From positions 1-27,499 of the forward strand of contig CAMLGG010000042.1 in NCBI GenBank assembly GCA_946479475.1: a stretch of DNA of 27,499 nucleotides, given 5' to 3'. Position 1 is the first letter of the stretch, and each line of letters starts with the position of its first letter. This document shows positions 3,474-21,618 of the stretch, piece after piece. The notes below the pieces were generated by a model. It ran no database searches. It saw nothing but the letters and a program-made list of their open reading frames with translations, and was not told the DNA's origin. Origin of the DNA: an uncultured Ideonella sp. GTDB taxonomy: Bacteria > Pseudomonadota > Gammaproteobacteria > Burkholderiales > Burkholderiaceae. The translations under genes were made by a program, and so were the position numbers.

Positions 3474-4715
3474 TCAACCCGTGTAGTCCTTCCACCCCCG
3501 CTGGTGCGCCCCCTCGACCTGGGCCGCCTTCGGCGCGATCACGTCGAACTGGGTGTCCTCGATGGTGTTGCCGGAGAGCTTGATCTTCGCCTGCGTCGCA
3601 TCGCTGCGGACCACTGCCTCCTCGCCGTTGCGGAAGGTGGAGTTGTTCACGCTGATGTCGATCGGGAAGTCCTTGCCGCCATTGGTGCGGATGGCCTTGC
3701 CGAAGGTGTCGGCGGTGAAGTTGTTGAGCGTGAACGAGCCGCCGTGGTTGAGCTGGAAGATCTTGTCGCTGGCGTTGAAGGCGCCGCCGCCGTTGATCGT
3801 CACCTTGCCCTCGCCCTTCATGGTGAAGGCGTCCTCGCCGACGTCGCGCCACCAGACGTTGTCCAGCGTCGCGTCGCCCTTGGCGTGGACGCCGTCGGCG
3901 CCTGAGAGCTGCACGTTCTTCAGTTTCGCACCAGGCTCCAGCTCGAAGACCGGCTTCTGGCTCTCGCCCTGGCCGCCGTCGCCCAGCGCAGGGCCGGCCT
4001 TGAAGTGCATGCCCTTGCCGTCGAAGGTCTCGCCGGCCTTGACCACGATGGTCTGGTTGACGATCTTCTCCCCGTTCATCGGCGGCGGGCCGTCGACCTT
4101 GGACGAAGGCTTGCCGCTGCCGGTCGTCGGCGTGGCGTCGGGTTCTTCGGGCTTGTCGGTCGGCTTGGTGGCGCCGGCGCCGCTTCCTGCGGTGGGCTTG
4201 TCGGGTGAAACGCCGTGGTCCGAATCCGGACTGCCGCTCGTGCCGACCGTGCCGACCGTGCCGCCCGTGCGGCCCGTCCCATCCGGCCCGCCGACACCGC
4301 CCGAACCGCCTCCGCCGTAGGAGCCCTTCTTCGGCTCCTCGATCTGGTCGAGCGTATTGCCGCCGCCGCCCAGGTTGCCGGCAAGCTGTTGGGCCGAGTG
4401 CTTGCACTGGTGCTGGCCGTCGCCGCCGCCGCTCAGCTGGCTGAGCAGTTGCAGCAGCTGCGAGAACTCCTGCAGCAGGCCCTGGGCCTTGCCGGCGCCG
4501 CCCCTGTCGCCGGCTCCGCCGGCCCCGCCGGCGCCCTTCGGGCCCTGCGGTTCCTGGCCCTGGGCGAGCGCCTGCATCAGCTGCATGACGATGGCCGCCA
4601 CGAGGGCGCGGACCGCCTCGGCCTGGGCATGCCGGGCCAGCATGTCGCCGAGGCCTTGACTCTCCTGCGCCGGCCGATGGTGCTGCGGAAGGTGGATGTG
4701 CAGATCGATGGACAT
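3474..4715 (-). CDS. hrpW: HrpW-like harpin with C-terminal pectate lyase domain
   Basis: This 413-residue protein has two parts. Residues 1-210 are harpin-like: an MSIDLHIHL start, helices rich in Gln and Leu (about 34-52 and 78-96), then long Gly/Pro/Ser/Thr-rich linkers. Residues 214-405 form a pectate lyase family 3 domain: a right-handed beta-helix pattern with NVWWRDVGEDAFTMKG and GGGAFNASDKIFQLNHGG, the signature segments of that family. HrpW proteins of Pseudomonas, Erwinia and Ralstonia are type III-secreted helper proteins that bind pectate in the plant cell wall; I infer the same here. No Sec signal peptide is present. An AGGAGG lies 6 bases before the ATG. The gene starts 16 bases after the second harpin gene and is the last of the operon driven by the PIP box at 6849-6873. 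Confidence 0.88.
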   Translation of the reverse strand: MSIDLHIHLPQHHRPAQESQGLGDMLARHAQAEAVRALVAAIVMQLMQALAQGQEPQGPKGAGGAGGAGDRGGAGKAQGLLQEFSQLLQLLSQLSGGGDGQHQCKHSAQQLAGNLGGGGNTLDQIEEPKKGSYGGGGSGGVGGPDGTGRTGGTVGTVGTSGSPDSDHGVSPDKPTAGSGAGATKPTDKPEEPDATPTTGSGKPSSKVDGPPPMNGEKIVNQTIVVKAGETFDGKGMHFKAGPALGDGGQGESQKPVFELEPGAKLKNVQLSGADGVHAKGDATLDNVWWRDVGEDAFTMKGEGKVTINGGGAFNASDKIFQLNHGGSFTLNNFTADTFGKAIRTNGGKDFPIDISVNNSTFRNGEEAVVRSDATQAKIKLSGNTIEDTQFDVIAPKAAQVEGAHQRGWKDYTG

Positions 4716-4731
4716 GCTGGCCTCCTCGCCG

Positions 4732-6027
4732 TCAGGCCTTCATCTGGCCGAGCGCCTGGATCACCTGCTTGATCAGCTGCGCCACGTCCTGCAGGCCCTT
4801 GTTGCCGTTGTCGGGCTGCTTGTTGCCGTTGTCGCCGGAGGCCTGGCTTTCCTGCAGCGCCTTCACCAGCTGCTTCAGGGCATCGCCGATGGCGTCCTTC
4901 TGCTTGTCCTTGGCATCGGCCTTGTCGCCGCGCAGGGCTTCGAGGATCTCCTTCAGCAGCTTGACGACCTGGTCGAGCGAGGCGTCCTGCGACTTGCCGG
5001 CGTCGTCCGTCTTGCCCGTCTCCTCGGTGTTGCCCGTTTCCTCGGTCTTGCCAGTCTCGTCCGTGCCACCGGTTTCGTCGGTGCCGCCCGTCTGGTCGGT
5101 GCCACCGGTTTCGTCCGTGCCGCCGGTCTGGTCCGTGCCGCCGGCCTCGTCGGCGCCGCCGGTCTGGTCGGTGCCACCCGCGTCGCCGGAACCCGAAGCG
5201 CCGTCGGCCTGGCCGCCGCCGCCCAGGGCCTCGATGAGCTTCTCGAGGATCTTGAGGATCTGCGTCAGCATGTCGCCGCCCTGGTCCTTGCCGTCGACGC
5301 CATCGCTGCCCTCCGTGCCACCCGGGCCACCGGGACCTTCCGTGCCGCCGGGGCCGCCAGGACCCTCGGTACCGCCAGGGCCACCGTTGCCGCCCGCGCC
5401 GTCGCTGCCGTCGGCCTTGCCGCCGCCCAGCGCCTGGATCAGCTGCATCAGCAGCTCGATGATCTGCTGCAGCGAGCCGTCGCCGCCGGCCTTCTTGTCG
5501 CCGTTCACGCCGCTGCTGCCGTCGGTGCCCTGCGTGCCGTTGGGGTTCATCAGCGCCTCGGCCACCTGGCGCGCGAACTGGCCCATCAGGCCTTGCGACA
5601 GGTCCTGGTTGCCGTCCTGGCCGAGCTTGTCGAGCGTGTTCTGCCCGCCGCCGCCGAGCGTCTCGGCCAGTTGCTGGGCCAGGTCGTTCGCCTGGTTCTT
5701 CTTGCCGTGGCCGAGCACCTGGTTGAGCATCTGAAGCAGCTCGATGAACTGCTGCAGCAGGCCCTCGATGCCCTGGCCCTTGCCGACGCCCTTCTGGCTG
5801 TCGGCGCCGTTGGCACCGCCAGGGCCGCCGGCGCCGCCCGGGCCACCTGGGCCCTGGACCTGGTCCTGCGACTTGTCCTTGGACAGCGCCTGCATGAGCT
5901 GCTGCAGCATCACCGCGACGAGCATCTTGACGATGTCGTTGCGCAGGTCCTGCGAGTGTTGGTGATCGTGCCGGACCTTGCCGAGCTGGGACAGTGCCCC
6001 GAGGTTGATGTGCAGATTGATGGACAT
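4732..6027 (-). CDS. Harpin-like glycine-rich secreted protein with tandem repeats
   Basis: This 431-residue protein has no Sec signal, almost no Cys and heavy Gly, Gln, Asp and Thr content, as in harpins (heat-stable type III helper proteins). The start at 6027 has AAGGAG eight bases upstream; upstream extension of the frame is not supported. It opens with MSINLHINL, shared with its two neighbours. Short amphipathic Leu/Gln helices recur at about residues 88-105, 186-201, 254-269, 350-366, 384-391 and 414-427, separated by flexible Gly-rich stretches. Residues 215-241 are three 9-residue GGPGGTEGP repeats, and 284-349 are eleven 6-residue GGTD(Q/E)T-type repeats. The segment with LGGGGQNTLDKL is paralogous to LGGGGNTLDQI in HrpW. 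Likely secreted by the local T3SS as HrpZ/PopA-type harpin or translocator helper; the exact role is inferred. Confidence 0.75.
   Translation of the reverse strand: MSINLHINLGALSQLGKVRHDHQHSQDLRNDIVKMLVAVMLQQLMQALSKDKSQDQVQGPGGPGGAGGPGGANGADSQKGVGKGQGIEGLLQQFIELLQMLNQVLGHGKKNQANDLAQQLAETLGGGGQNTLDKLGQDGNQDLSQGLMGQFARQVAEALMNPNGTQGTDGSSGVNGDKKAGGDGSLQQIIELLMQLIQALGGGKADGSDGAGGNGGPGGTEGPGGPGGTEGPGGPGGTEGSDGVDGKDQGGDMLTQILKILEKLIEALGGGGQADGASGSGDAGGTDQTGGADEAGGTDQTGGTDETGGTDQTGGTDETGGTDETGKTEETGNTEETGKTDDAGKSQDASLDQVVKLLKEILEALRGDKADAKDKQKDAIGDALKQLVKALQESQASGDNGNKQPDNGNKGLQDVAQLIKQVIQALGQMKA
4981..5178 (-). repeat. Eleven 18-base tandem repeats inside the harpin gene
   Basis: The minus strand encodes eleven back-to-back hexapeptides of the type GGTDQT/GGTDET, decaying to GKTEET, GNTEET, GKTDDA and GKSQDA at the 3' end. 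The frame is kept throughout. Alternation of Q and E types suggests duplication of 12-residue double units. Confidence 0.9.
5305..5385 (-). repeat. Three 27-base tandem repeats inside the harpin gene
   Basis: Three consecutive nonapeptides GGPGGTEGP are encoded on the minus strand, the third ending GSD instead. They form a flexible linker between two amphipathic helices of the harpin. Confidence 0.85.
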
Positions 6028-6062
6028 GCAAAGCGCTCCTTGTGTTGCTTGAGGACGAAGAG

Positions 6063-6089
6063 AAAGGCCACCCACGGGATGGCCTCGGG
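6063..6089 (-). terminator. Possible terminator or attenuator between harpin genes
   Basis: On the minus strand, GGCCATCC and GGTGGCC form a stem of about 7 pairs with one bulged T and a short loop, followed by TTTCTCTT. It sits just after the stop of the first harpin gene (6098) and before the ribosome site of the second. It could lower expression of the downstream harpins or be a processing hairpin. Confidence 0.4.
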
Positions 6090-6097
6090 GTGGGGGA

Positions 6098-6763
6098 TCA
6101 GTCGGGTTCGCTCGGCCGGTTCGCGTCGTCGGCAGGCGCTGCGGGCTCGTCTTCGTCCGGCGTCTCGGGCTCGGGCTTGAGGTCTTCGCGCAGGTCGTTC
6201 GACATCTGGCTGAGCTCCTTCTCGAAGGCCTTGTCGCCCTTGCCGCCCAGCAGCGACTCCTTGCGGCCCTCACGCATCGCGCTGACCATCATCGAGACGG
6301 CGTCCTCCATGGCGTTGCCGTCGTCGCCGGTGTCGTTGCCGTCCTGAGCCAGGCCCTGCGGCGCGTTGCCGTCGTCGAGCTGGCCGGCCACCTTGTCGGC
6401 CACCGGATTGGCACCGCCCTTGTGCCCGTGCTGGGGCTTGCACAGCAGGGCCAGCAACAGCAGCAGTTCGAGGAAGGGCTTGAGCACGCCGAGCGCCTTG
6501 TCGCCGGCGCTCGACGCGGCATCGCTGCCATGCGTCCTGTCGACCGGGTTGCCGCTGTCGACCGGGCCGCCACCGTGGGCCGGAGCGTGCCCGGCCTTGT
6601 CGCCGCCCTGCTTCGCGGCCTGCAGCAGGCGCTCCAGGTTGGCCAGGACGATGAGGGCCGCCAGGTCCTGGCGCAGGTTCTTCTCGGCGTTCGAGCGGTT
6701 CGCGGCCGGCTCGTGCATGTGGCACGAAGGCTGGCTGTGGATGTAGAGATGAATCGACGACAT
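6098..6763 (-). CDS. Harpin-like secreted protein, first gene of the harpin operon
   Basis: This is a 221-residue hydrophilic protein, Gly-, Asp- and His-rich, without a Sec signal peptide. It starts MSSIHLYIHSQ, matching the MSI(D/N)LHI(H/N)L start of the two downstream genes. A Leu-rich segment, LGVLKPFLELLLLLALLC near residues 90-107, occupies the place of the LLQQFxELLQML helix of the other harpins, and VAGQLDDGNAPQG corresponds to their QLAxxLGGGGxNTLDxL block. The C-terminus is strongly acidic (PEPETPDEDE). A GGAGA lies about 9 bases before the ATG. The PIP-box promoter at 6849-6873 lies directly upstream with a leader of about 40 bases, which makes it an HrpX/HrpB-type target. I infer a type III-secreted helper or translocator-like protein; no known family is recognised with certainty. 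Confidence 0.65.
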   Translation of the reverse strand: MSSIHLYIHSQPSCHMHEPAANRSNAEKNLRQDLAALIVLANLERLLQAAKQGGDKAGHAPAHGGGPVDSGNPVDRTHGSDAASSAGDKALGVLKPFLELLLLLALLCKPQHGHKGGANPVADKVAGQLDDGNAPQGLAQDGNDTGDDGNAMEDAVSMMVSAMREGRKESLLGGKGDKAFEKELSQMSNDLREDLKPEPETPDEDEPAAPADDANRPSEPD

Positions 6764-9585: not shown

Positions 9586-10797
9586 ATGGCCAAGCGTCTC
9601 GACTCCAAGCTCATCAACGACCTGTCGATGGCGGGTTTCCTGGTCGGCGTGCTCGCGCTGATGATCCTGCCGCTGCCCACGCTGCTCATCGACACGCTGC
9701 TGGCGATCAACCTCAGCATCAGCGTGCTGCTGCTGATGACGACGCTGTTCATCCCGGATGCGGTGGCGCTGTCGACCTTCCCTTCGCTGCTGCTGTTCAC
9801 CACGCTTTTCCGGCTGTCGCTGAACATCGCCTCCACCAAGGCGATCCTGCTGCACGCCGACGCCGGCCACCTGATCGAGAGCTTCGGCCAGCTGGTGGTG
9901 GGCGGCAACCTGGTGGTGGGCATCGTGGTGTTCCTGGTCATCACGATCGTGCAGTTCATCGTGATCGCCAAGGGCTCCGAGCGGGTGGCCGAGGTCGGCG
10001 CGCGCTTCACGCTGGACGCGATGCCCGGCAAGCAGATGAGCATAGACGCCGACCTGCGCGCCGGCCTGCTCACCGCCGACGAGGCCAAGCGCAAGCGCGC
10101 GCTGCTGAGCATGGAGAGCATGCTGCACGGCGGCATGGACGGCGCGATGAAGTTCGTCAAGGGCGACTCCATCGCCGGCCTGATCATCACCATGGTCAAC
10201 ATCCTGGCCGGCGTCGTCGTGGGCATCATGTACCACGGCATGACGGCCGGCGAGGCCGCCAACCGCTTCGCCGTGCTGTCGATCGGCGATGCGATGGTCT
10301 CGCAGATCCCGGCGCTGTTCATCTGCATGTCCGCCGGCATCCTGACCACGCGGGTGTCGGACGACCACAAGAAGACGCCCACCTCGCTCGGCCAGGACAT
10401 GACCGAGCAGCTGACGCGCAATCCGCGCTCGATGTACCTCGCCGCGGGGCTGACCGCGGGCTTCGCGGCCATCCCGGGCTTCCCGATGATCCCGTTCGCC
10501 CTGCTGGCCGCCGGCCTGGCAGCCGGTGGCTGGCAGCTGGCCAAGAAGCGCGCCAAGGGCGGCAGCAACGCGATCTCCAAGCCCATCGCCGCACTGCTGC
10601 GCGAAGGCGGCAAGGGGGATGCTCCTTCCATCCAGCAGCGGGCGCCGGAGTTCGCCAAGCCGCTGTCGATCCGCCTCTCGTCGGGGCTGGCCGCCGTGAT
10701 CCACGCCGAGCGGCTGGACGATGCCCTGGTGAGCGAACGCGAGGCGCTGCAGGCCCGGGTCGGCCTGCCCTTACCCGGCGCGGCGATGTGGGTCTAA
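9586..10797 (+). CDS. sctV: T3SS export gate SctV (HrcV), N-terminal part ended by in-frame TAA
   Basis: These 403 residues are the membrane half and start of the cytoplasmic domain of SctV/HrcV (FlhA-like). The FHIPEP-type signature lies at about residues 140-160 (RFTLDAMPGKQMSIDADLRAG region), surrounded by roughly eight hydrophobic segments. SctV forms the nonameric export gate that docks chaperone-substrate complexes. The frame stops at TAA 10795-10797 inside subdomain 1 of the cytoplasmic part, just after LPGAAMWV. The missing remainder continues in the same frame from 10798 (next entry); together they would make about 683 residues, the normal family length. So this is either a nonsense-mutated gene, a sequence error, or an unusual split gene. 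The Shine-Dalgarno sequence before its ATG is weak. Confidence 0.9.
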   Translation: MAKRLDSKLINDLSMAGFLVGVLALMILPLPTLLIDTLLAINLSISVLLLMTTLFIPDAVALSTFPSLLLFTTLFRLSLNIASTKAILLHADAGHLIESFGQLVVGGNLVVGIVVFLVITIVQFIVIAKGSERVAEVGARFTLDAMPGKQMSIDADLRAGLLTADEAKRKRALLSMESMLHGGMDGAMKFVKGDSIAGLIITMVNILAGVVVGIMYHGMTAGEAANRFAVLSIGDAMVSQIPALFICMSAGILTTRVSDDHKKTPTSLGQDMTEQLTRNPRSMYLAAGLTAGFAAIPGFPMIPFALLAAGLAAGGWQLAKKRAKGGSNAISKPIAALLREGGKGDAPSIQQRAPEFAKPLSIRLSSGLAAVIHAERLDDALVSEREALQARVGLPLPGAAMWV

Positions 10798-11637
10798 AAG
10801 GAGGTGGAAGGCCTGCGCTTCGAGGTGCTGATCAACGACGTGCCCACGGCCCTGGCCGAGCTGCCCGGCCGGCTGCTGCTGCTGACCGATCCGGAATCGC
10901 CGCTGGCGGCCAAGGCCCAGAAACACGGGCCTGCGCTGGGCCAGGCCGAGTCCCTCTGGCTGGCGCCCGAGGTCGTGCCCGCCGACCAGCGCAAGGGCTG
11001 CCTGGAGCTTGAGCAGGTCGTGGCGCGCGAGGTGATGGTGGTGCTGCAGCGCCATGCCCACCTCTTCATGGGCGTGCAGGAGGTGCAATGGGTCATCGAG
11101 CGGGCCACGCCCGAGTACCCCGGCCTGGTGGCCGAGGTGCAGAAGGTGATGCCGCTGCAGCGCATGGCCGAGGTGCTGCGCCGGCTGCTGGAGGAGCAGG
11201 TGCCCATCCGCAACATCCGCAGCATCTTCGAGAGCCTGATCATGTGGGGCCCGAAGGAGAAGGACCTGCTGCTGCTGACCGAGTACGTGCGCTCGGACCT
11301 GGGCCGCTACCTGGCCCACGAGGCCGCGGGCGGCCAGCGCCAGCTCTCGGCCATCCTGCTGGATCCGGGCATAGAGCAGGCCATCCGCGGCTGCATCAAG
11401 CCGACGCCGGCCGGCAACTACCTCGCCATGTCGCCCGAGGACGCGCGCGACCTCACCGAGCGCATCGCCCGCGTGGCCGGCACCAGCCGCCAGGCCGGCG
11501 TGGCCCTGGTCACCTCGATGGACATCCGGCGCTACGTGAAGAAGATGATCGAGAGCCGGCTGGACTGGCTGCGCGTCTACTCCTTCCAGGAGCTGGGCAA
11601 CCTCGTCGAGCTGCGGCCCATCGGCCGCGTGTCCTGA
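10798..11637 (+). CDS. sctV: T3SS SctV (HrcV), C-terminal cytoplasmic part, same frame after the stop
   Basis: The frame reads on directly behind the TAA: KEVEGLRFEVLINDVP and then 270 more residues that match the SctV cytoplasmic domain, including LxVxxREVMVVLQRHA-type, PLQRMAEVLRRLLEEQVPIRN and SDLGRYLAHE segments in the expected order. Behind the stop lies AAGGAGGTG (10798-10806), a near-ideal Shine-Dalgarno sequence. Possible restart codons are CTG at 10813 (8 bases after AAGGAGG) or GTG at 10825; the GTG at 10804 is inside the Shine-Dalgarno itself. No ATG lies in the first part, which makes restart awkward. The domain itself is intact to its C-terminus at VSELRPIGRVS-like end, followed by hpaP. 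Confidence 0.88.
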   Translation, partial: KEVEGLRFEVLINDVPTALAELPGRLLLLTDPESPLAAKAQKHGPALGQAESLWLAPEVVPADQRKGCLELEQVVAREVMVVLQRHAHLFMGVQEVQWVIERATPEYPGLVAEVQKVMPLQRMAEVLRRLLEEQVPIRNIRSIFESLIMWGPKEKDLLLLTEYVRSDLGRYLAHEAAGGQRQLSAILLDPGIEQAIRGCIKPTPAGNYLAMSPEDARDLTERIARVAGTSRQAGVALVTSMDIRRYVKKMIESRLDWLRVYSFQELGNLVELRPIGRVS

Positions 11638-11650
11638 TCGCGAGGCGACC

Positions 11651-12340
11651 ATGCAGGCCCCGCAAAGAACCCGGGCGCCGGCGCGGCCGGTGACGCCCGC
11701 TGCGCCGGCCGCTCCGGTGGACGCGGCACGGCAGGATCGCTTCCTGCGCCAGTTGGTGCCTCCGGCCTGGGACGAGGTCGACGAACCGGACGACCGCGAG
11801 GCCTCGGACGCCTCGTGGTTCGACGCCCCCGTCGACCCCGTGGACGACGGACGCGGCGACGGCTCCTCGCCGCAGGGCGACGAAGGTCGACACGACGACG
11901 AGCAGCCTTCCGAGTCGCCTGCGCCACCGCCGGCGGATTGCGCTCCCCTGGACCACGCCTCCTGGGCATGGCTTCGAACGGCCGGCCTCGCCTCGCACGA
12001 CGACGCCCACGAGGACGCCGGGCCGCATGCGTCGCGCGTTGGCGCCACCTCTTCGCCCCAGGACGCCGCCTGGCTCGGCGACATCGTCGAGCAGGTCGGC
12101 CAGCTCACGGCCGGCGGCGACGCGCGCTTCCAGCACTGGTCCGTCACCGTGCCGCTGGACCCGCAGAGCCTTCCCGATTGCGAGCTGCGCATCACGCTTT
12201 CGCCTGGATCGATGGTCCTTCGGTTCCGCACCGGCTCGGCCGAATCCGCGCGCCTAGTCTCACGGCATCGCGACACCCTGAGGGCGCGGCTCGAAGCCCT
12301 GCCCTCGTCGCCCTCGGCGATCGACATCGACCTCGAATGA
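11651..12340 (+). CDS. sctP: T3SS substrate-specificity switch protein SctP (HpaP/HrpP)
   Basis: This 229-residue protein has a variable, Pro-, Ala- and Asp-rich first 130 residues and a conserved-looking C-terminal domain, WSVTVPLDPQSLPDCELRI followed by LRFRTGS and a final helix, which fits the T3S4 domain of SctP proteins (YscP, HpaP, HrpP). SctP measures or controls pilus length and helps SctU switch substrates. Position between sctV and sctQ is where Xanthomonas and Ralstonia carry hpaP. GAGGCG lies shortly before the ATG. Its stop overlaps the sctQ start as ATGA, so translation is coupled. Confidence 0.82.
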   Translation: MQAPQRTRAPARPVTPAAPAAPVDAARQDRFLRQLVPPAWDEVDEPDDREASDASWFDAPVDPVDDGRGDGSSPQGDEGRHDDEQPSESPAPPPADCAPLDHASWAWLRTAGLASHDDAHEDAGPHASRVGATSSPQDAAWLGDIVEQVGQLTAGGDARFQHWSVTVPLDPQSLPDCELRITLSPGSMVLRFRTGSAESARLVSRHRDTLRARLEALPSSPSAIDIDLE

Positions 12341-13359
12341 ACTCCACCCCCGTCGCCCCTGTCTCGCTCAGCGGCCGCCTGCCGGCCGTCAGTGCCGCCG
12401 AGGCCCGCCTGGCCCGCACGGTGTTCGATCGCCGGTTCACGCGCTGGATCGAGCAGTTGCTCGCCCAGGCCGCGCCGGCGGCGGCGCCCGCCCGCCTGCG
12501 CGCGACGCAGGGCAGCGCGGGCCTCGCCGTCCAGCTCGCCAGCCGACACGGCGAGATCGAGCTCACCACCGCGCCATCCACCTGGCCGGCCCTGGAGCTG
12601 GCCGCCGGCCTGCCCGATGCGGCCCTGGCCCGCGACGTGGCCGATGCACTGCTGGCCGAGCCCCTGTCGGCGCTCGCGCGGTGCATGCCCGGACTCACGC
12701 TGAAGGCGCTGCGCCCACGAAGCCCGCAGGCCTCGGTCGAGCTTTGCATCGGCGATTGGAACGTGGGCCTGAAGTCGCTCGACGACGGCGCGGCTCGGCA
12801 ACTCGGCGCGCAGATGCGCCGCGCGGTGGCGGCCGACCTGTCGCCCCTGCGCGGCCTGCGCCTGCCGGCCCGGCTGCGCCTGGGCCGGCGCAACTTCGAG
12901 CTCGACGACCTGCGATCGCTCGCCGCCGGCGACGTGCTCGCCTGCACCGCGCGGCGGGCCGACGCCCCGCTGCGCTGCCAACTCTTGATTGGACTGGGAA
13001 TCTTCATGCAAGCCACCGCCGACATCGACCTGGACAGCCCCGACGCCACGCTGACGGAGGCGCCGCAGCTCGAAAGCGAGCCGCACGAGGCGGCGCCCCT
13101 GGAGGCGCCGTCGATAGGCGCCCTGAACGTGCCTGTCTCCTTCGAGATCGACACGGCCCGCGTCTCGCTGGACGAACTCGCCGCCTTCGATGCCGGCTCC
13201 ATCGTCACGCTCGATGCGCCGGTGCAGGACGCGCAGGTGCGGCTGGTGTGCTTCGGCCAGGTCGTCGGCGTCGGCCGGCTGGTGGCCGTGGGCGACTGCC
13301 TGGGCGTGCGCATCGAGCGCATGGGCCTGCCGGACGCCATCGCCGCCGGAGAGGCCTGA
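12337..13359 (+). CDS. sctQ: T3SS cytoplasmic ring protein SctQ (HrcQ)
   Basis: This is a 340-residue protein in the correct operon place. The N-terminal half is Ala/Arg-rich and variable; residues about 260-335 form the SPOA (FliN-like) surface-presentation domain with NVPVSFEIDTARVSLDELAAF and GxVxLDAPVQ-type strands ending GRLVAVGDCLGVRI. SctQ builds the cytoplasmic sorting platform with SctK, SctL and SctN. It is a single full-length gene, unlike the split hrcQA/hrcQB of Pseudomonas syringae. An in-frame ATG at 13006 with GGGA 7 bases upstream could give a separate 117-residue SctQ-C form. The start at 12337 overlaps the hpaP stop. Confidence 0.9.
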   Translation: MNSTPVAPVSLSGRLPAVSAAEARLARTVFDRRFTRWIEQLLAQAAPAAAPARLRATQGSAGLAVQLASRHGEIELTTAPSTWPALELAAGLPDAALARDVADALLAEPLSALARCMPGLTLKALRPRSPQASVELCIGDWNVGLKSLDDGAARQLGAQMRRAVAADLSPLRGLRLPARLRLGRRNFELDDLRSLAAGDVLACTARRADAPLRCQLLIGLGIFMQATADIDLDSPDATLTEAPQLESEPHEAAPLEAPSIGALNVPVSFEIDTARVSLDELAAFDAGSIVTLDAPVQDAQVRLVCFGQVVGVGRLVAVGDCLGVRIERMGLPDAIAAGEA

Positions 13360-13361
13360 CC

Positions 13362-14039
13362 ATGGGCGCGTCGCCGATCGGCATCGACCCGGTATCGCTC
13401 TTCCTCGCCCTGATGGCGCTGGCCATCCTGCCCTTCGTGGCGATGGTGGTCACCTCCTACACCAAGGTCGTCGTCGTGCTGGGCCTGCTGCGCAATGCCC
13501 TGGGCGTCCAGCAGGTGCCGCCCAACATGGTGCTCAACGGCATCGCCATCATCATCTCGGCCTACGTGCTGGCGCCTGTGGCGATGGACGCTGCCGACCG
13601 CATGCAGCGCTCGCCGGGCGCGGCGAACACGATCGAGCAGAGCTCCAACACCCAGCAGCTCATGTCGGCCGTCGGCTCGGCGCGCGAGCCCTTCAGGGCC
13701 TTCCTCGTCAAGCACGCCCAGCCGGCCGAGAAGGCCTTCTTCCTGAAGTCGGCCCGGGCCGTGTGGCCGCCCGAGCGCGCCGCCGCCCTGCAGCCGGACG
13801 ACTTCATCGTGGTCGCGCCGGCCTTCCTGCTCACCGAGCTCACCGAGGCGTTCCGCATCGGCTTCCTGCTTTACCTCGCCTTCATCATCGTCGACCTCGT
13901 GGTGGCCAACGTGCTGCTGGCGATGGGCCTGTCGCAGGTCTCGCCGACCAACGTGGCGATTCCGTTCAAGCTGCTGCTGTTCGTGGTGCTCGACGGCTGG
14001 TCGCAGGTCATGCACGGCCTGGTGCTGACGTACCGCTGA
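13362..14039 (+). CDS. sctR: T3SS export apparatus protein SctR (HrcR)
   Basis: This 225-residue membrane protein carries all hallmarks of SctR/HrcR (FliP-like): TSYTKVVVVLGLLRNALGVQQVPPNMVLNG early on, then a polar loop, and PAFLLTELTEAFRIGFLLYLAF with the terminal MSPTNVAxPFKLLLF-type block. SctR forms, with SctS and SctT, the helical export gate. Four hydrophobic segments are visible. The ATG at 13362 lies 2 bases after the sctQ stop. Nothing is missing. Confidence 0.97.
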   Translation: MGASPIGIDPVSLFLALMALAILPFVAMVVTSYTKVVVVLGLLRNALGVQQVPPNMVLNGIAIIISAYVLAPVAMDAADRMQRSPGAANTIEQSSNTQQLMSAVGSAREPFRAFLVKHAQPAEKAFFLKSARAVWPPERAAALQPDDFIVVAPAFLLTELTEAFRIGFLLYLAFIIVDLVVANVLLAMGLSQVSPTNVAIPFKLLLFVVLDGWSQVMHGLVLTYR

Positions 14040-14049
14040 GGAGCCGGCC

Positions 14050-14313
14050 GTGACACATGAGTCCATCGTCCAGCTCACCTCCGAGGCGCTGATGTTGTGC
14101 CTGCTGCTGTCGCTGCCCGCGGTGGCGGTGGCGGCCATCGTGGGCCTGCTGGTCGCCCTGGTGCAGGCGGTGACCTCGCTGCAGGACCAGGCCATCTCCC
14201 AGGGCGTGAAGCTGATCGCCGTGACGATCGCGGTGGCGGTGAGCGCGCCCTGGATAGGCGGCACCATCGTCCGCTTCTCCGAACGCCTGCTGGGCGCGAT
14301 GTTCGCCGGATGA
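14050..14313 (+). CDS. sctS: T3SS export apparatus protein SctS (HrcS)
   Basis: This is an 87-residue protein with two hydrophobic hairpins joined by a short polar turn, the standard SctS/HrcS (FliQ-like) form. LVQAVTSLQDQAISQGVK in the loop is the family signature. The start is GTG at 14050, with GAGGAG shortly upstream; the ATG at 14057 is out of frame. Its last bases overlap the ATG of the next gene (14310). Acts in the export gate with SctR and SctT. Confidence 0.96.
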   Translation: MTHESIVQLTSEALMLCLLLSLPAVAVAAIVGLLVALVQAVTSLQDQAISQGVKLIAVTIAVAVSAPWIGGTIVRFSERLLGAMFAG

Positions 14314-15335
14314 ACTCGAACTTCAACGCCAGCCGCCAGCACCAGCAGCTGCTGCAGAAGCAGACGCTGCTGCGGCGCCACAACCAGGAGGTGGCGCACG
14401 CCCGCGAGGCGGCGCACGAGGCCCAGCAGGAGCGCGCCGAGCAGGCCCACGAGCAGGCGCAGGGGCGCTATGGCGACACGATGTTCCGCACCGTGCCGCT
14501 GCCACCGGCGCCACCGCCGCGCCAGAACCGCGCGGCGCCCCACCGGGGCGAGGTCCGGCCGGCGCGCGCGGACGGCAAGGAGGAGGAGCGCGACGATCCC
14601 GCCGCGCCCGAGGCCGCCGAACGGCGGGAGATGCCCGGCCACGAGCCGGTGGAAGCCACCGACAAGGATGGCGAAGGGCAGCAGCACCACCATCACGGCG
14701 GCTCTCATGGCGGCAGCGACCAGGCCGGCGGCTTCGGCGGGCAGTCGGGCGGAGGCCATTCCGGCGGGCACTCCGGTGGCGGACACTCCAGCGGCGGCCA
14801 GTCCGGCAGCCAGGGCGGCGGCCATCAAGGTGGCGGCAACCAGGGCGGCCACTCGCATCCAGGCGCGGCCACCCGCTTCGCCACGCCTGCCGCCGCCCGC
14901 GCCGCCGCCCTGCCCTCCTCGCTCGCCGCCGGACAGGCCCTCGAGCTGCAAGCCTTTCGCAGCACCCTGGCCACGATCGACCTGCCAGAGCGACGCGCGC
15001 GGCATCTCGCCCAGGCCATGGTCGCGCTCAGCCGGCCCGGCCCCGCCGGCTTGAACAACGACGCGATGATGATGTCGCTGATGGCGGCCTACATCGAGAG
15101 CACCCACGAACCCGGCGCCTTGTCCACCCTGGCGCGCGTGAAGCAGGTGCTGCTCGAGCTGGGCCCGACGCTCACCGGCGCGCTTCCGCCCGGCCCCCGC
15201 GAGCGCGGGCGGTTGGCCCTGCTGCCCTTGAAGCTGCTGGCCTGCGACCGGCAGCGCACCGAAGCGCAGCGTCGCATCGCGGTCGAACGCCTGCAGGCCG
15301 GCCAGCGCTGGCCGGCCGACACGATAGAGGCCTGA
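14310..15335 (+). CDS. HpaA-position protein with His/Gly-rich insert
   Basis: This 341-residue hydrophilic protein occupies the place of hpaA, between sctS and the chaperone gene, and overlaps sctS by 4 bases. HpaA of Xanthomonas is itself secreted and controls effector export by binding HpaB. Residues 1-55 are a Gln/Glu/His-rich helix; 60-120 are Pro/Arg/Glu-rich; 126-185 are a low-complexity His-Gly-Ser stretch with HHHH and many GGH units; 190-341 are a helical domain (LPERRARHLAQAMVALS, LMAAYIESTHEP). I do not recognise a family by sequence. The call is by position and by having the secreted-control-protein look; it might instead be an unrelated export regulator. Export through the nearby T3SS is inferred. 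Confidence 0.55.
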   Translation: MNSNFNASRQHQQLLQKQTLLRRHNQEVAHAREAAHEAQQERAEQAHEQAQGRYGDTMFRTVPLPPAPPPRQNRAAPHRGEVRPARADGKEEERDDPAAPEAAERREMPGHEPVEATDKDGEGQQHHHHGGSHGGSDQAGGFGGQSGGGHSGGHSGGGHSSGGQSGSQGGGHQGGGNQGGHSHPGAATRFATPAAARAAALPSSLAAGQALELQAFRSTLATIDLPERRARHLAQAMVALSRPGPAGLNNDAMMMSLMAAYIESTHEPGALSTLARVKQVLLELGPTLTGALPPGPRERGRLALLPLKLLACDRQRTEAQRRIAVERLQAGQRWPADTIEA

Positions 15336-15336
15336 G

Positions 15337-15792
15337 ATGAGCGTCGAGCGATACGAGGAGCTGGTCACCCAGCTCTGCGAGGCGATCCAGCTGCCGGATC
15401 CCCGCGCCGTACTCCAGCGCGGCTGGGTCGAGGTCGAGGGCTTCGAAGTGCTTCTTGCGCACTACCAGAACGACCCGTCGGCGATGTACCTGAACTTCCA
15501 CTTCGGCATCGTGACGCCGGGGCGGGCGCTGACGGTGTTCCGCCTGCTGCTGGAGTCGAACCTGACCGTGTATGCGCAGGACCAGGCGCAGGTCGGCGTG
15601 AACCCCGACACCGGCGGCATCATCCTCATCGTCCGGGTGCCCATGACGCCCGACATCAGCGGACAGTGGATGGCCGAGACGCTCACCCACTACGCCGAGC
15701 ACGGCCGCTACTGGAACGACAACATCCTCGCCGCGGCCGAGCAGGCCTTCGAGGGCCTGTGCTCCGGCGAGTACCTGTGGATGAAGGCTTGA
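15337..15792 (+). CDS. hpaB: HpaB-like CesT-family type III chaperone
   Basis: This 151-residue protein is acidic, with the alpha-beta-beta-beta-alpha-beta-beta-alpha pattern of CesT/Tir-type class I chaperones: an N-terminal helix (YEELVTQLCEAIQLPD), strands such as GWVEVEGFEVLLAH and MYLNFHFGIV, and a long C-terminal helix from WMAETLTHYAEH. HpaB of Xanthomonas and its Ralstonia homologue are of this size and act as broad export chaperones for effectors, together with HpaA. Its ATG is one base after the stop of the hpaA-position gene. It is the last gene of the sctU operon. Direct contact with SctN and effectors is known for the family and inferred here. Confidence 0.82.
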   Translation: MSVERYEELVTQLCEAIQLPDPRAVLQRGWVEVEGFEVLLAHYQNDPSAMYLNFHFGIVTPGRALTVFRLLLESNLTVYAQDQAQVGVNPDTGGIILIVRVPMTPDISGQWMAETLTHYAEHGRYWNDNILAAAEQAFEGLCSGEYLWMKA

Positions 15793-16569: not shown

Positions 16570-16898
16570 GCGGTCCGACAGGTCTGCGTGAAGCTGTTGC
16601 CCGTATGTTGCGCAACCAAAACCTAGGGTTGCTACGGATATGCCCCAGGCGCCCTATCGCCCGTCGAACGCCCGCGCGGCCCAGCTGTCGCCTTTTGACC
16701 ATGGCGCGCCCGAAAGTGTCGGCACTTCGCCTTTCGTTGAATATTGCATGAACATCGTGTGGCCTCCGCCCGGGCGCGGGCAGCGCCGCAACGCTTGCGC
16801 TTGCAGTCAAGACATCGCGTTGTGCACAGGCCACGATCGGGTTCGACCACGCCCCGGATGCGATGCCGGCGCGACACCAATCATCATCGGGAGAATGG
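16570..16898. promoter_or_regulatory. Divergent regulatory region between hrpG-like and double-Crp genes
   Basis: The 329 bases hold no gene I can support. They contain a perfect palindrome GTTGCGCAAC (16607-16616), whose right arm also pairs as GCAACC with GGTTGC (16612-16632), an AAGTG-TCGG-CACTT inverted repeat (16714-16727) and TGTGCACA (16821-16828). No PIP box with correct spacing was found; TTCGC at 16726 has no partner 20 bases on. These dyads are candidate operators for the adjoining regulators. No convincing sigma-70 promoter is visible. Confidence 0.45.
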
Positions 16899-18524
16899 AT
16901 GCCAGAGACGCAAGCGCCCTCGGGGCGCGTTCGTGCAAGGGAACATCTCGACTGTTCGACGGGCCTGAGCTGCGAAGAGCGGCGCGCCGTGGAGCAGGGC
17001 CGGCTCTTCCGCCGCCTGCCGGCGGCGCTGCAGGACTCCATCATGGGCCGCGCCTACGTGTGGCGGCTGAAGGACGGCGAGCAGGTCATGTCGGCCGAAG
17101 GCACGCCCGAACACTGGATCGGCGTGGCCTCCGGCGAGCTGCTGGGACGCAGCCGTTCGATGGAGAACGGCCAGACCATCGCCACCCACGTCCTCGCGCC
17201 GGGGGTCTGGCTGAATCTCTACAGCCCGCTTTGCGACGTGCGCCGGCGCGGCATCGAGTTCGTCGCGAGCGGACCCACCTGCGTGCTCGCCCTGAGCCGG
17301 GCCGACATGCTCGACCTTCGCGACCGCTGGCCGGAGCTCGTGGCCGCGATGCTGAGCCTGTCTGCCATCAACCTGCGCTTCGCGCACCTGATGCTGCAGG
17401 AGGCCCAGAGCAGCACGCTCGAGCAGAAGCTGCTGCGCTGGCTCGATTCGGCCGTGCGTTTCGAGCATGCCGACCGCGACGACTCCGGCTGGCTTTATCG
17501 CAGCGTCGTGGCGCAGTCCGCGCTGGCCTGCGCGGCGGGCGTCTCGCGCCAGAGCTGGAACGCAGGCATGGCCCGGCTGGAGGCCGCGGGCGTGATCCAG
17601 CGCGTGAAGGACGGCCTGAAGGTGCCCGACCTGGCCCGCCTGAAGACGGCCCTGAGGGAGCACGGCCTGCACGAGACGGCCCAGTACCTGCAGGCCGATG
17701 CCCAGCCGGTGCGACCGCCGGCGTCGCTGACGGCCGAACTGCTCCCCGCGTCCTCGCTGCGCGGCGACGAACGCGAGGTGCTGGGCACGCTGCGCTGGTT
17801 CGCCCGGCTGGGCGAGCCGCTGCGCGAGACCCTGCTGTCGCAGATGCACGTGCTGCGCCTGCCAGACAAGGCGCCGGTGGCCTTCGCCGACCGCCAGCCG
17901 CCTGGATGGGTAGCCCTGGTGCGCGGTGGCCTGCGGCTGATCTCCTGTCCGGTCGCACCGGCTGTCGCCGAGGGGTCGACGGGCGCCGGGCAGCGGCGCC
18001 GGCCCTCGCGGGCCATTCTGGCGCAGCTGCAAGCGGGTGCAACCGTCTTCGAGCACGCGCTCGTGGACCACGGCAACTGCGGCGTGGATGTCTGCTGCGA
18101 AGGCGACAGCACCTTGCTGCTGATGCCGGCAGAGGCCTACCGAGCGGCCCTCGCCGCGCATCCCGAATTCAGCCTGGGCGCTCTGAAGTGGCTGACGATC
18201 AGCCACCACCATGCGGGCCTGTTCAAGGTGATCCTCACGCTGCCCATGCCCTTGCGCCTGCGCGCCTGGCTGGACTTCCTCGTCCGCCAGCGAGGCCAGC
18301 CCGACGGCCCCTGGGTGACGCTCTCCATGACGCTGAGCCAGCAGGAGATCGCGGCCTGGCTGAGCACCACGCGGCAGTACGTGGCGAAGGCCCTGAACGA
18401 GCTCGATGCCAGCGGGGTGCTGCAGCGCCAAAGGGATGCCTTTCGCCTGAGCCGGGATGCCCTGCCCCTGGCCGGTCCCGTCCCGCCGCTGCGCATTGTT
18501 GAGGAAGCCGCCGAGCGTTCTTGA
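16899..18524 (+). CDS. Regulator made of two fused Crp/Fnr-like units (first copy)
   Basis: This 541-residue protein has two complete Crp-like units in one chain. Unit one: a cupin-like sensor domain (about 30-190, with VWRLKDGEQV and APGVWLNLYSP) and a helix-turn-helix near 202-232 (SALACAAGVSRQSWNAGM). Unit two: a sensor domain about 280-440 and a helix-turn-helix near 478-507 (SQQEIAAWLSTTRQYVAKAL). The Gly-Glu and Arg-Ser residues that bind cyclic nucleotide in Crp are not recognisable. The start at 16899 is preceded by GGGAGA at good spacing; an in-frame ATG at 16863 would add 12 residues. It is divergent from the hrpG-like gene and 72 bases before the hrpX-like gene. The Crp dimer may here be made within one chain. 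Ligand and targets are unknown; control of the T3SS genes is inferred from location. Confidence 0.8.
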   Translation: MPETQAPSGRVRAREHLDCSTGLSCEERRAVEQGRLFRRLPAALQDSIMGRAYVWRLKDGEQVMSAEGTPEHWIGVASGELLGRSRSMENGQTIATHVLAPGVWLNLYSPLCDVRRRGIEFVASGPTCVLALSRADMLDLRDRWPELVAAMLSLSAINLRFAHLMLQEAQSSTLEQKLLRWLDSAVRFEHADRDDSGWLYRSVVAQSALACAAGVSRQSWNAGMARLEAAGVIQRVKDGLKVPDLARLKTALREHGLHETAQYLQADAQPVRPPASLTAELLPASSLRGDEREVLGTLRWFARLGEPLRETLLSQMHVLRLPDKAPVAFADRQPPGWVALVRGGLRLISCPVAPAVAEGSTGAGQRRRPSRAILAQLQAGATVFEHALVDHGNCGVDVCCEGDSTLLLMPAEAYRAALAAHPEFSLGALKWLTISHHHAGLFKVILTLPMPLRLRAWLDFLVRQRGQPDGPWVTLSMTLSQQEIAAWLSTTRQYVAKALNELDASGVLQRQRDAFRLSRDALPLAGPVPPLRIVEEAAERS

Positions 18525-18596: not shown

Positions 18597-20033
18597 ATGC
18601 TGCTGACCCTGCTCTCGCTCTCGTGCGAACGTATCTCCGCCCAGGCCCCCCAGCTGTCCCGGCTGATCCGCGAAGCCCGGCTGAAGGACGCCGTGAAGAT
18701 CGGCCGCCAGCGCTTCGAACGCATGGCGGGCCGCGACGAAACCAGCGCCGAGGAAGGCGCCCTGCTCGGCCGCGCGATGCTCGTCATCGGCCTGGCCGAG
18801 GCGGCCAGCGAAGTCTTCCACCAGCAGCTCAAGGCCTACGACCAGGTTTCGCGCGGCATGGTTCGCTGGCATTCGGCACTCGACCAGGCCTGGCTGTTCC
18901 AGCACCTGAACCGCGCTTCGCGCGCCGTCGAGTGCTGGAACATCGTGGCCAGGGATGCAGACGCACCGGCAGCGCTGCGCGTGGAGGGCTTCTGCGGCGC
19001 CGCCTTGTCGCTGCAGGCCCTCGGCCAGCACGCCCATGCCTTGTCCGCGGCCGAGCATGCCCTGGCCCTGTGCGCCGAACCCGCCACCGAGCCCTTGCGT
19101 GACTGCGCAGAGGCGATCAGGCTGGAGGTGCTGGCGCGCCTGCGCCTTCTCGACTGCGAGGACCTGTCGGACCACGCGTTCGCCCAGCGCACGATCGATG
19201 CGCTGCGCGACGCCCCGTGCCGCGAGAAGCTGGCAGCGATCGCGTCCACCCTGCTGGCCCGGTCGCAGGTACCGCCTCTGCTCGCCGCCCGCGTCTCGTT
19301 CCTGCGGGGCGGACTGCTGGGTGACCACCAGGGGGCGCGCCTGGAGGCGGTCTCGGCCTTCATCCGCTGGCTGCGCGAGCACGAGCTCGGCGGCGTGGAT
19401 GCCACTTCCCGCATCGAGGCCTGCCTGGCGCTGCTCTCGGCCCAGGCAGTCGGCGTGGCGCGCGAGATGATCCAGCCCCTGGCCGGCAGCGAGCGCGACA
19501 TCGAAGCCAACCCCCATGCCATGGACATCCAGTACTGCCTGTCCAAGATCCATCTCGGCGACGGCCGCTTCGGCGACTCGATGAGGCAGTACAAGCGCCA
19601 CGTGGCGCAGGCCATGCGGGTCGTGCACGGCACGGTCATGTCGCGGATGGACATGCCGGTGCCCGGCCTGGCCACGCCTTCGCAGGACACGACGGGCCTT
19701 CGCCTGCCCCCGCGCTACCGGGCCGCCTACCGCTACATCATCGAGCACCTTCATGACAACGAGCTGTCGGTGCGCGAGGTGGCGGGCCGCCTGGGCGTGA
19801 CCGAACGCGCCCTGCAGCTGGCTTTCCGCAGCCACCTCGGCATCACGCCGGCCGAACTCATCCGCAGCGAGCGCATGAAGCGCATCCGCAGCGAGCTCGA
19901 AGAGGTCAGCGACACCGGCGGCCGCGCCCGCGTGCTCGACGTGGCCAATCGCTGGGGCATCAGCAACCGGTCCACGCTGGCCAATGCGCTCAAGCGCGCC
20001 CAGCCCATGGCCGCGCAGCCGACGCTCGCCTGA
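18597..20033 (+). CDS. hrpX: HrpX/HrpB-like AraC-family activator of hrp genes
   Basis: The 478-residue length equals HrpX of Xanthomonas and HrpB of Ralstonia (about 476-477). The N-terminus MLLTLLSLSCERISAQ matches their start, followed by about 350 residues of helical, repeat-like sensor region with Ala/Leu-rich pairs of helices. The C-terminal AraC domain (about 371-468) shows NELSVREVAGRLGVTERALQLAFRSHLGITPAELI and a second helix-turn-helix at VANRWGISNRSTLANALK. These proteins bind the PIP box, and three such boxes are present in this window at the correct promoters. The ATG lacks a clear Shine-Dalgarno sequence. An out-of-frame ATG at 18551, better placed behind AAGGGG, lies upstream. 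Between the two double-Crp genes it probably forms part of one plus-strand transcript. Confidence 0.9.
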   Translation: MLLTLLSLSCERISAQAPQLSRLIREARLKDAVKIGRQRFERMAGRDETSAEEGALLGRAMLVIGLAEAASEVFHQQLKAYDQVSRGMVRWHSALDQAWLFQHLNRASRAVECWNIVARDADAPAALRVEGFCGAALSLQALGQHAHALSAAEHALALCAEPATEPLRDCAEAIRLEVLARLRLLDCEDLSDHAFAQRTIDALRDAPCREKLAAIASTLLARSQVPPLLAARVSFLRGGLLGDHQGARLEAVSAFIRWLREHELGGVDATSRIEACLALLSAQAVGVAREMIQPLAGSERDIEANPHAMDIQYCLSKIHLGDGRFGDSMRQYKRHVAQAMRVVHGTVMSRMDMPVPGLATPSQDTTGLRLPPRYRAAYRYIIEHLHDNELSVREVAGRLGVTERALQLAFRSHLGITPAELIRSERMKRIRSELEEVSDTGGRARVLDVANRWGISNRSTLANALKRAQPMAAQPTLA

Positions 20034-20067: not shown

Positions 20068-21618
20068 ATGGCGCAAGCCATGCCTTCGCCCCTTTCGTCT
20101 TCCGACCCCTCGCACCCTCCGACCCGGCACGACGGCCCTTTGAGCGCGGCCGAGCGTGACACGCTGGCCCAGGGCAGCTTCCTGTCCCGCCTGCCGGCAC
20201 CCCTCGTCGATGCCATCCTGGCCCGCGTACGCGTCTGGCGGCTGTCCGATGGCGAACCGCTGCTGCAAGTCGGCCAGGCCGTCGAGCACTGGATCGGCAT
20301 CGCCGGCGGCAGCGCCCTGGTGTTCATGCCCGTGCCGCACCTGGAGGAGCCCCAGTGCACGAACTGGGTCCCGCCAGGCGTCTGGCTGAACCTCTACAAC
20401 CCCGTGGCGCTCGCGGTCAGCGACTTCGACGTGCGCGCGCAGGGGCCGACAGTCGTCGCGGCCGTGGACGCCCAGGACCTGCAGGCGCTATGCCAACGCT
20501 TTCCCGAATTCAGCCGCGAGCTGGCGGTCGCCAACGCCGGCAATCTGCGGCGGACCCTGCAGGTGATGATCGCGTCGCAGCGTGCCACGCTGCGACAGAA
20601 GCAACTGTTCTGGCTCGCCGAGACCTTGCAGGGCTGCAGTGCCGGCAGCGACGCGGCTGAGGCCACCTTGCGCCTCAGCCACACGGCCCTGGCGCGTTGG
20701 CATGGCGTGTCGCGGCAAGCCTGGTGGGAGGGCATGAAGGCGCTCGAGCGCGACGGACTCATCCGGCGGGCAGCCGACGGCGGCATCACTGCGGACATCG
20801 TTCAGCTCCAAGCCGCCCTGGAAGAGGGCAACCGGGCGGCCGCCGTCGAGCAGCCCTACGCCACCGGGACGGCGCCCTGGCCCCCCACGCCGCACGACAG
20901 CGTGGCGCCCGGCCGGCCGGCAATGCTCGCGCTGAGAACCGCCGAGCACGAGCGCGTCCGGTGCAACCGGTGGTTCGCCAGCCTCCCGCTCGACGTTCAG
21001 CACGAGATCCTGGAGTGCAGCCTGGTGCGGCGCTTCTCGCCCGGCGAGACCGTGCTGCAGGCCAACCAGGCTCCGACCGGTGCGTGGCTGGTGGTCGATG
21101 GCTGCGTCCGGCTCGACAACCCGGTGACGCCACCTCCCCTGCGCACGATAGCTCTGCTGCCGCCGGGGGCCTGGTATGCCTTCCATGACATGGCCTACCG
21201 CGGGCCGGCCTCCTTCGACGGTGCGGCGCTGGGGCACACCACCCTGCTGTGGCTGCCGCCGGAGGCATTCGACCGGCTGTTCGACCAGTCCCTGGACTTC
21301 CGCCTCGCCCTGGCGCGGCTGCTGGCCCTGCAGCAGTCGCACGCTGCCCGCTGCGCCGCCTTGTACTTCTGGCCCGTCGATACCCGCGTGCTCCTGTGGC
21401 TGGACATGATGCATCGCTACTTCGGCCTCGGCTCCGGCCCCGGCCCGGAGGTCGCGGGCGCCTTCACGCTGGAAGACGTCGCCCAGTGGCTGGGAACGAC
21501 GCGCCAGGTGGTCTCGCGCGAGCTCCGGTCGCTGGAGCAGCGAGGTGTGATCCGCCGCACGCGTCAGCGCCTGGAACTGCTCGACCCTGCTCAGCTCCCT
21601 CGGCTGGCGATGGCTTGA
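20068..21618 (+). CDS. Regulator made of two fused Crp/Fnr-like units (second copy)
   Basis: This 516-residue paralogue of the gene at 16899 has the same plan. Unit one has VWRLSDGEPL and PPGVWLNLYNP, nearly the same as in the first copy, and a helix-turn-helix near 203-232 (TALARWHGVSRQAWWEGMKAL). Unit two has a Crp-like sensor with FSPGETVLQANQ and PPGAWYAFHDM and a helix-turn-helix near 467-495 (LEDVAQWLGTTRQVVSREL). The classical cyclic-AMP pocket residues are not visible. The start at 20068 has AAGGGG 9 bases upstream; a Met four codons on is an alternative. It follows hrpX by 34 bases. Function is inferred to be control of secretion genes or of neighbouring regulators; the effector molecule is unknown. 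Confidence 0.8.
   Translation: MAQAMPSPLSSSDPSHPPTRHDGPLSAAERDTLAQGSFLSRLPAPLVDAILARVRVWRLSDGEPLLQVGQAVEHWIGIAGGSALVFMPVPHLEEPQCTNWVPPGVWLNLYNPVALAVSDFDVRAQGPTVVAAVDAQDLQALCQRFPEFSRELAVANAGNLRRTLQVMIASQRATLRQKQLFWLAETLQGCSAGSDAAEATLRLSHTALARWHGVSRQAWWEGMKALERDGLIRRAADGGITADIVQLQAALEEGNRAAAVEQPYATGTAPWPPTPHDSVAPGRPAMLALRTAEHERVRCNRWFASLPLDVQHEILECSLVRRFSPGETVLQANQAPTGAWLVVDGCVRLDNPVTPPPLRTIALLPPGAWYAFHDMAYRGPASFDGAALGHTTLLWLPPEAFDRLFDQSLDFRLALARLLALQQSHAARCAALYFWPVDTRVLLWLDMMHRYFGLGSGPGPEVAGAFTLEDVAQWLGTTRQVVSRELRSLEQRGVIRRTRQRLELLDPAQLPRLAMA

What the first reader, a model, noticed from the sequence alone, without database searches (positions are those of the whole stretch)
10780..10830. In-frame TAA, followed by a near-ideal Shine-Dalgarno, splits sctV
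sctV stops at 10795-10797, but the same frame then continues for 279 codons as a perfect SctV cytoplasmic domain. The two pieces make normal length (about 683). Right behind the stop is AAGGAGGTG, which could help ribosomes restart, yet the only start codons at good spacing are CTG 10813 and, further on, GTG 10825. The break is inside subdomain 1, in a loop between beta strands. Three readings: a nonsense mutation or sequence error that kills secretion; a real two-piece SctV made by stop-restart; or stop readthrough. No other core gene here is damaged, which argues against general decay.
Basis: partly seen in the sequence, partly recalled or inferred. Interest (0 to 1): 0.78.

Follow-up and report, generated by a model that had tools for sequence, protein, structure and literature searches.

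The report
Lone stop codon breaking sctV gene
A gene for a key part of a bacterial protein-injection machine carries one stop codon in its middle; comparison with relatives points to a sequence error or a very recent ordinary break, not to a working two-piece protein.

Summary
The stop is there: TAA at 10795-10797 cuts sctV into 403 codons (9586-10794) and 279 codons of the same frame (10798-11634), with AGGAGG at 10799-10804. The two-piece reading is not supported. The frame runs through the site in 22 of 22 related loci, and 118 of 118 aligned near-full-length relatives have a residue there; the nearest is 98%/96% identical to the two pieces. The stop sits in a tight cluster of odd codons: the only two of 682 residues never seen in those relatives are codons 392 and 396, within 12 codons of the stop, and codon 396 is the only TTA among 7,533 codons examined. 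The downstream piece deviates at no conserved column, so the break is very recent or not in the organism. It falls inside subdomain 1, between two strands. The Shine-Dalgarno-like run is formed by Lys-Glu codons that near relatives share; no in-frame ATG, GTG or TTG lies at usable spacing. Best reading: a local cluster of wrong bases in this record (0.52); next, a real, very recent nonsense mutation (0.38); stop-restart 0.03, readthrough 0.04. Reads across 10740-10830 would decide; none are available here.

The parts
9586..10797 (+). Upstream piece of sctV: membrane part, linker and the first part of subdomain 1; 403 codons and the TAA
   Evidence: TIGR01399 positions 3-390 of 677, 538.3 bits; FHIPEP 473 bits
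10795..10797 (+). In-frame TAA
   Evidence: Direct reading; 21 of the 22 other CDS ends examined are TGA, 1 is TAA
10759..10797 (+). Cluster of odd codons: 392 (10759-10761), 396 (10771-10773, TTA) and the stop 404
   Evidence: Residues 392 and 396 not seen in 118 relatives; the only TTA among 7,533 codons
10799..10804 (+). Shine-Dalgarno-like AGGAGG, formed by sense codons of sctV
   Evidence: Lys-Glu at the same place in P0121 and P0122, AAG GAG in L014
10804..10827 (+). Candidate restart codons GTG 10804 (overlaps AGGAGG), CTG 10813 (spacer 8), GTG 10825 (spacer 20)
10798..11637 (+). Downstream piece of sctV: rest of subdomain 1 and subdomains 2-4; 279 codons and TGA
   Evidence: TIGR01399 positions 398-677 of 677, 253.8 bits; FHIPEP 170.1 bits
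8500..9552 (+). sctU, intact neighbour
   Evidence: TIGR01404 1-340 of 341, above cut-off
11651..14313 (+). sctP, sctQ, sctR, sctS, neighbours downstream
   Evidence: sctP below the NCBIfam cut-off, above the Pfam one

Best explanation
The organism most likely has an ordinary one-piece sctV, and the stop belongs to a short stretch (about 10759-10797) in which this one record carries several wrong bases. Shown: the stop, its being private among the relatives examined, the cluster of odd codons around it, and full constraint on the downstream piece. Inferred: that the cluster comes from sequencing or assembly and not from mutation. On this reading the protein is made whole and works as the usual export gate, and there is no special mechanism to explain.
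For: Frame open through the site in 22 of 22 related loci; 61 of 61 listed matches in 53 of 399 genomes without a stop inside (flagellar FlhA included); residue present at the site in 118 of 118 near-full-length relatives. Only two of 682 residues are unseen in those 118, both within 12 codons of the stop; of 296 columns conserved at 90% or more the window deviates at exactly these two, and 8 of the 296 lie that near (chance about 6e-4, computed after seeing the pattern). Only TTA codon of 7,533 lies 8 codons before the stop. Downstream piece: 0 deviations at columns conserved at 90% or more, dN to L003 0.118 against 0.119-0.187 for the nine other loci, relative-rate counts against P0121 even.
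Against: No reads were seen; the evidence for error is indirect. The number of unseen residues (2) is below the control median of 3, so only the clustering is odd. The codons just before the stop are also rather variable between relatives (reading). With 16-17 loci as the yardstick the window also deviates at invariant sctV codons 260 and 371, and in neighbours, for example 12 of 139 in sctT. In the upstream piece two of four outgroups give more window-specific than P0121-specific changes (4 to 1 and 5 to 1; the others 3 to 2 and 1 to 5). Five other genes judged by profile are whole, so the record is not generally poor. A real multi-base mutation would look the same.
Confidence: 0.52

Rival explanations
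1. A real, very recent nonsense mutation, perhaps one multi-base event that also changed codons 392 and 396. Translation ends inside subdomain 1, the export gate lacks most of its cytoplasmic ring, and this type III system does not secrete in this strain.
For: The stop reads cleanly in the record and is private. The downstream piece shows no decay, as expected if the event is young. Shortened proteins of this family do occur on long contigs: 12 of the 120 listed hits to the downstream piece have a longest contig above 20 kb (start points of most not examined).
Against: Changes after loss of function should be spread over the gene, yet the two unseen residues lie within 12 codons of the stop. 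No copy of a repeat was found that would explain a clustered event by template switching: one 11-base direct match only. Other core genes judged by profile are whole.
Confidence: 0.38
2. A working two-piece SctV: ribosomes stop at TAA and restart just behind it with the help of AGGAGG, most plausibly at CTG 10813, and the two chains assemble.
For: AGGAGG at 10799-10804 with CTG at a spacer of 8, 15 bases behind the stop; downstream piece under full constraint; start and end of both pieces fit the family. Restart over short distances occurs in E. coli, with pair-specific efficiency (section 6 of PMC10666635).
Against: No relative examined has the split. The run is made of Lys-Glu codons shared by P0121 and P0122 and, as AAG GAG, by L014 (1 of 16 loci). 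No in-frame ATG, GTG or TTG at usable spacing. The cut parts the small sheet of subdomain 1. The abstract of PMC10666635 says that about 20 nt between genes almost abolishes coupling. A YscV fragment of subdomains 3-4 alone was insoluble (passage of PMC9163089), a comparable but not identical cut. Five downstream-part proteins that begin near here (P0001, P0003, P0004, P0006, P0008) all carry a residue at the stop's column, so they do not share this stop.
Confidence: 0.03
3. Stop readthrough or suppression: some ribosomes insert an amino acid at the TAA and make full-length SctV.
For: The same frame continues for exactly the missing length and the downstream piece is constrained.
Against: The stop is not conserved in any relative examined. 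RNA around it folds no better than shuffled sequence (z 0.79, 1.72 and 0.22 for three spans). TAA is used for neither selenocysteine nor pyrrolysine (recalled). One other CDS examined ends in TAA, which speaks weakly against reassignment. No tRNA search was run.
Confidence: 0.04

Closest known systems
One-piece SctV (HrcV, TIGR01399) of Burkholderiales type III systems: P0121 (metagenome), P0122 (Ideonella sp. YS5), loci of Acidovorax sp. SUPP3334, Paracidovorax species and Rhizobacter sp. Root1221
   Same: Both pieces belong to this family; 98%/96% identity to P0121; same gene order around sctV in L001-L009
   Different: The relatives have one open frame through the site; the window has a TAA there
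Recent pseudogene by nonsense mutation
   Same: In-frame stop in an otherwise whole gene, private to one sequence
   Different: No spread of further changes; the odd codons are bunched at the stop
Gene pairs coupled by termination and restart (PMC10666635; abstract and one section seen)
   Same: Stop followed closely by a Shine-Dalgarno-like run and possible start codons
   Different: Common pairs overlap by 4 or 1 nt (abstract); here the only well-spaced codon is CTG, 15 bases behind the stop, and no relative examined has such a pair

Membership tests
SctV (TIGR01399) / FHIPEP (PF00771) | Membrane part present | tested here: met
   Upstream piece matches profile 3-390
SctV (TIGR01399) / FHIPEP (PF00771) | Cytoplasmic domain present | tested here: met
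   Downstream piece matches 398-677, with the first strands of subdomain 1 on the upstream piece
SctV (TIGR01399) / FHIPEP (PF00771) | One protein above the curated cut-off of 692.25 bits | tested here: not met
   Pieces score 538.3 and 253.8 bits apart; they were not joined
Functional split gene by stop-restart | Start codon at usable spacing behind a Shine-Dalgarno run | tested here: inconclusive
   Only CTG 10813 (spacer 8); GTG 10804 overlaps, GTG 10825 has a spacer of 20
Functional split gene by stop-restart | Split conserved in relatives | tested here: not met
   0 of 22 loci; 0 of 61 listed matches with a stop inside; 118 of 118 relatives have a residue at the site (chosen by length, so they could not have been split)
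Functional split gene by stop-restart | Break between folding units | tested here: not met
   Inside subdomain 1, between strands 399-403 and 411-416
Stop readthrough / recoding | Conserved stop with a conserved signal | tested here: not met
   Stop private; no unusual RNA fold
Stop readthrough / recoding | Suppressor tRNA or reassigned TAA | not tested
   No whole genome held; no tRNA search was run
Established pseudogene | Relaxed constraint behind the stop | tested here: not met
   0 deviations at conserved columns and ordinary dN; a young pseudogene is not excluded
Sequencing or assembly error | Anomalies bunched locally with sound sequence around | tested here: met
   also fits a clustered mutation
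Sequencing or assembly error | Reads do not support the bases | not testable with these tools
   No reads available

The most novel reading that the evidence does not exclude
A naturally two-piece SctV: the membrane piece ends with the first strands of subdomain 1, and the rest of the export-gate ring is a separate chain started at CTG 10813 behind AGGAGG, so that the ring is completed by strand exchange between two chains made in step.
Probability: 0.03. Interest if true: 0.75.

Novelty: not a real feature. Interest (0 to 1): 0.12.

Why it matters
If the split worked, it would show that the SctV ring can be built from two chains, which bears on how the ring is coupled to the membrane gate. 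As it stands the value is in avoiding a false claim: a strong-looking ribosome-binding run behind an in-frame stop can be plain Lys-Glu codons of a gene that is whole in its relatives. If the stop is real, it marks a strain with a silenced type III system.

Tried and rejected
Decay of the whole cluster was considered, because genes that stand between hrpB7 and hrcU and behind hpaA in other hrp clusters (recalled) are missing here. Rejected: L001-L009 have the same layout.

A natural class of split SctV was looked for with the downstream piece, a search whose length limits keep full-length relatives out. 121 hits, 120 listed. 25 of the 120 are 255-305 aa long and 24 of these have a longest contig under 8 kb (the other, P0097, 18,250). 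Five (P0001, P0003, P0004, P0006, P0008) begin within a few residues of the site, on contigs of 0.9-2.5 kb, but all five carry a residue at the stop's column.

Closer DNA relatives were sought by lysC similarity and genus and in 379 relatives of G061; the 5 genomes with a match there were already.

Template switching as source of the cluster: no support. RNA structure: none unusual. Papers, listings only: 6 papers; 1, unrelated; 3; 4; 8; 17, 10 listed; 0; none of the listed titles announces a split SctV, which is a weak negative. Not run: tRNA search, Rfam search, fold search against structure libraries.

Full report
What is there. sctV starts at ATG 9586 and stops at TAA 10795-10797 after 403 codons; the same frame stays open from 10798 to TGA 11635-11637. 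Searched apart, the pieces match the SctV profile TIGR01399 at positions 3-390 and 398-677 of 677, and both match FHIPEP. AGGAGG lies at 10799-10804. In-frame candidates behind it are GTG 10804 (overlapping the run), CTG 10813 (spacer 8) and GTG 10825 (spacer 20); the first in-frame ATG is 11035.

Surroundings. sctU lies upstream; sctP, sctQ, sctR, sctS, an unassigned ORF at 14310 and a 151-residue ORF at 15337 lie downstream; sctT and an hrpB7-like gene run the other way. L001-L009 (Acidovorax, Paracidovorax, Rhizobacter, one MAG) have the same layout, so the absence of the remaining core genes from this stretch is normal for the lineage and no sign of decay.

Is the stop shared? Not in anything examined. 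In 22 of 22 loci fetched with the downstream piece the frame runs through the site; two of them (L016, L017) begin at a contig end but include it. The second draw, 379 genomes, gave 5 genomes with a match, all seen before. Of the 120 listed relatives of the upstream piece (8,000 scored), 118 are 640-700 aa long and all 118 have a residue at the stop's position, 11 different residues in all. Being chosen by length they could not show a split, but the two left out, P0161 (479 aa) and P0225 (384 aa), do not end at this site. The nearest relative, P0121, is 98% and 96% identical to the two pieces.

A cluster of odd codons. Of 682 residues only two, codons 392 and 396, are unseen in the 118 relatives, and both lie within 12 codons of the stop. 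296 columns are conserved at 90% or more, 8 of them that near; the window deviates at exactly two of the 296, both among the 8. Two random columns would do so with a probability of about 6e-4, a figure computed after seeing the pattern. Codon 396 is TTA, the only one among 859 Leu codons and 7,533 codons in the 23 CDS pieces examined, which are not every ORF of the window. Of the 22 other CDS ends 21 are TGA and 1 is TAA. Against this: two unseen residues is fewer than the control median of 3, so the bunching and not the number is the signal; with 16-17 loci as yardstick the window also deviates at sctV codons 260 and 371 and in neighbouring genes; and the codons before the stop are rather variable in relatives (reading).

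No decay behind the stop. The downstream piece deviates at 0 columns conserved at 90% or more. Relative-rate counts against P0121 with four outgroups are 3, 4, 4, 2 window-specific to 3, 2, 3, 2 P0121-specific changes; for the upstream piece 3, 1, 4, 5 to 2, 5, 1, 1. dN to L003 is 0.118, against 0.119-0.187 for the nine other loci; the window's mean dN to ten loci (0.127) is slightly above the mean among those loci (0.118), several of which are close sisters. So the break is very young, or absent from the organism, or tolerated because the piece is still made, which is the split reading.

Why not a working split. Both pieces place the site at about YscV residue 417, inside subdomain 1 as given in PMC9163089 (passage). 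In a model of the intact relative P0121 (mean pLDDT 74.6, pTM 0.51, 81-87 in this stretch) it lies between strand 399-403 and strand 411-416, so a split would part one small sheet. PMC9163089 reports that a fragment of subdomains 3-4 alone was insoluble (passage), a comparable but not identical cut. The Shine-Dalgarno-like run is made by Lys-Glu codons: P0121 and P0122 have Lys-Glu there, and L014, 1 of 16 loci, has AAG GAG. AGGAGG occurs 15 times in 22,599 coding bases. PMC10666635 finds coupling to fall with distance: its abstract says that about 20 nt almost abolishes it, while its E. coli section gives 80-90% loss or complete loss at 38 nt and varied results at shorter distances, so weak restart at CTG 10813, 15 nt behind the stop, is not excluded. 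RNA folds of three spans around the stop have z-scores of 0.79, 1.72 and 0.22, no better than shuffles.

Evidence that leans the other way. Five downstream-part proteins begin within a few residues of the site (P0001, P0003, P0004, P0006, P0008). They lie on contigs of 0.9-2.5 kb and all carry a residue at the stop's column, so they do not share this stop; truncated contig ends are the simple explanation, but their DNA was not read. Shortened family members on long contigs exist (12 of 120 listed hits on contigs above 20 kb, none of them 255-305 aa long), so real breaks in this family are plausible. Five neighbouring genes judged by profile are whole, so the record is not generally poor.

Verdict. 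An isolated private stop: local error cluster 0.52, real recent nonsense mutation 0.38, working stop-restart split 0.03, readthrough 0.04. The first rests on indirect evidence; reads would settle it. Origin: the closest named relative by sctV is Ideonella sp. YS5 (P0122); no genome is held for the window, and an identical SctQ is listed with a longest contig of 3,401 bases, which fits, but does not prove, a metagenome origin.

Noticed in passing
16863-18524 and 20068-21618, plus strand: Two long Crp/Fnr-like proteins (553 and 516 aa), each with two HTH_Crp_2 stretches, flank an AraC-type regulator at 18597-20033; they look like tandem Crp fusions beside the type III genes.
   Followed up: no
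3474-6763, minus strand: A pectate-lyase-domain protein (PF03211) and two Gly/Gln-rich ORFs without family match behind sctT; a similar pectate-lyase ORF lies in 7 of the first 15 related loci. They resemble HrpW- and harpin-type secreted proteins (recalled).
   Followed up: no
14310-15335, plus strand: A 341-aa ORF between sctS and the 15337 ORF has no family match and only weak matches in 3 of the first 15 related loci, while its neighbours are well conserved.
   Followed up: no
P0119 (protein hit, Scopulibacillus darangshiensis): A 364-aa FHIPEP protein on a 151-kb contig that begins at the linker and holds the cytoplasmic domain without a membrane part; a possible natural membrane/cytoplasm split at another site.
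   Followed up: no
P0097-P0099, P0103, P0104 (protein hits): FHIPEP proteins of 262-271 aa that begin inside the cytoplasmic domain, one cluster with 79 members; probably fragments, not checked.
   Followed up: no
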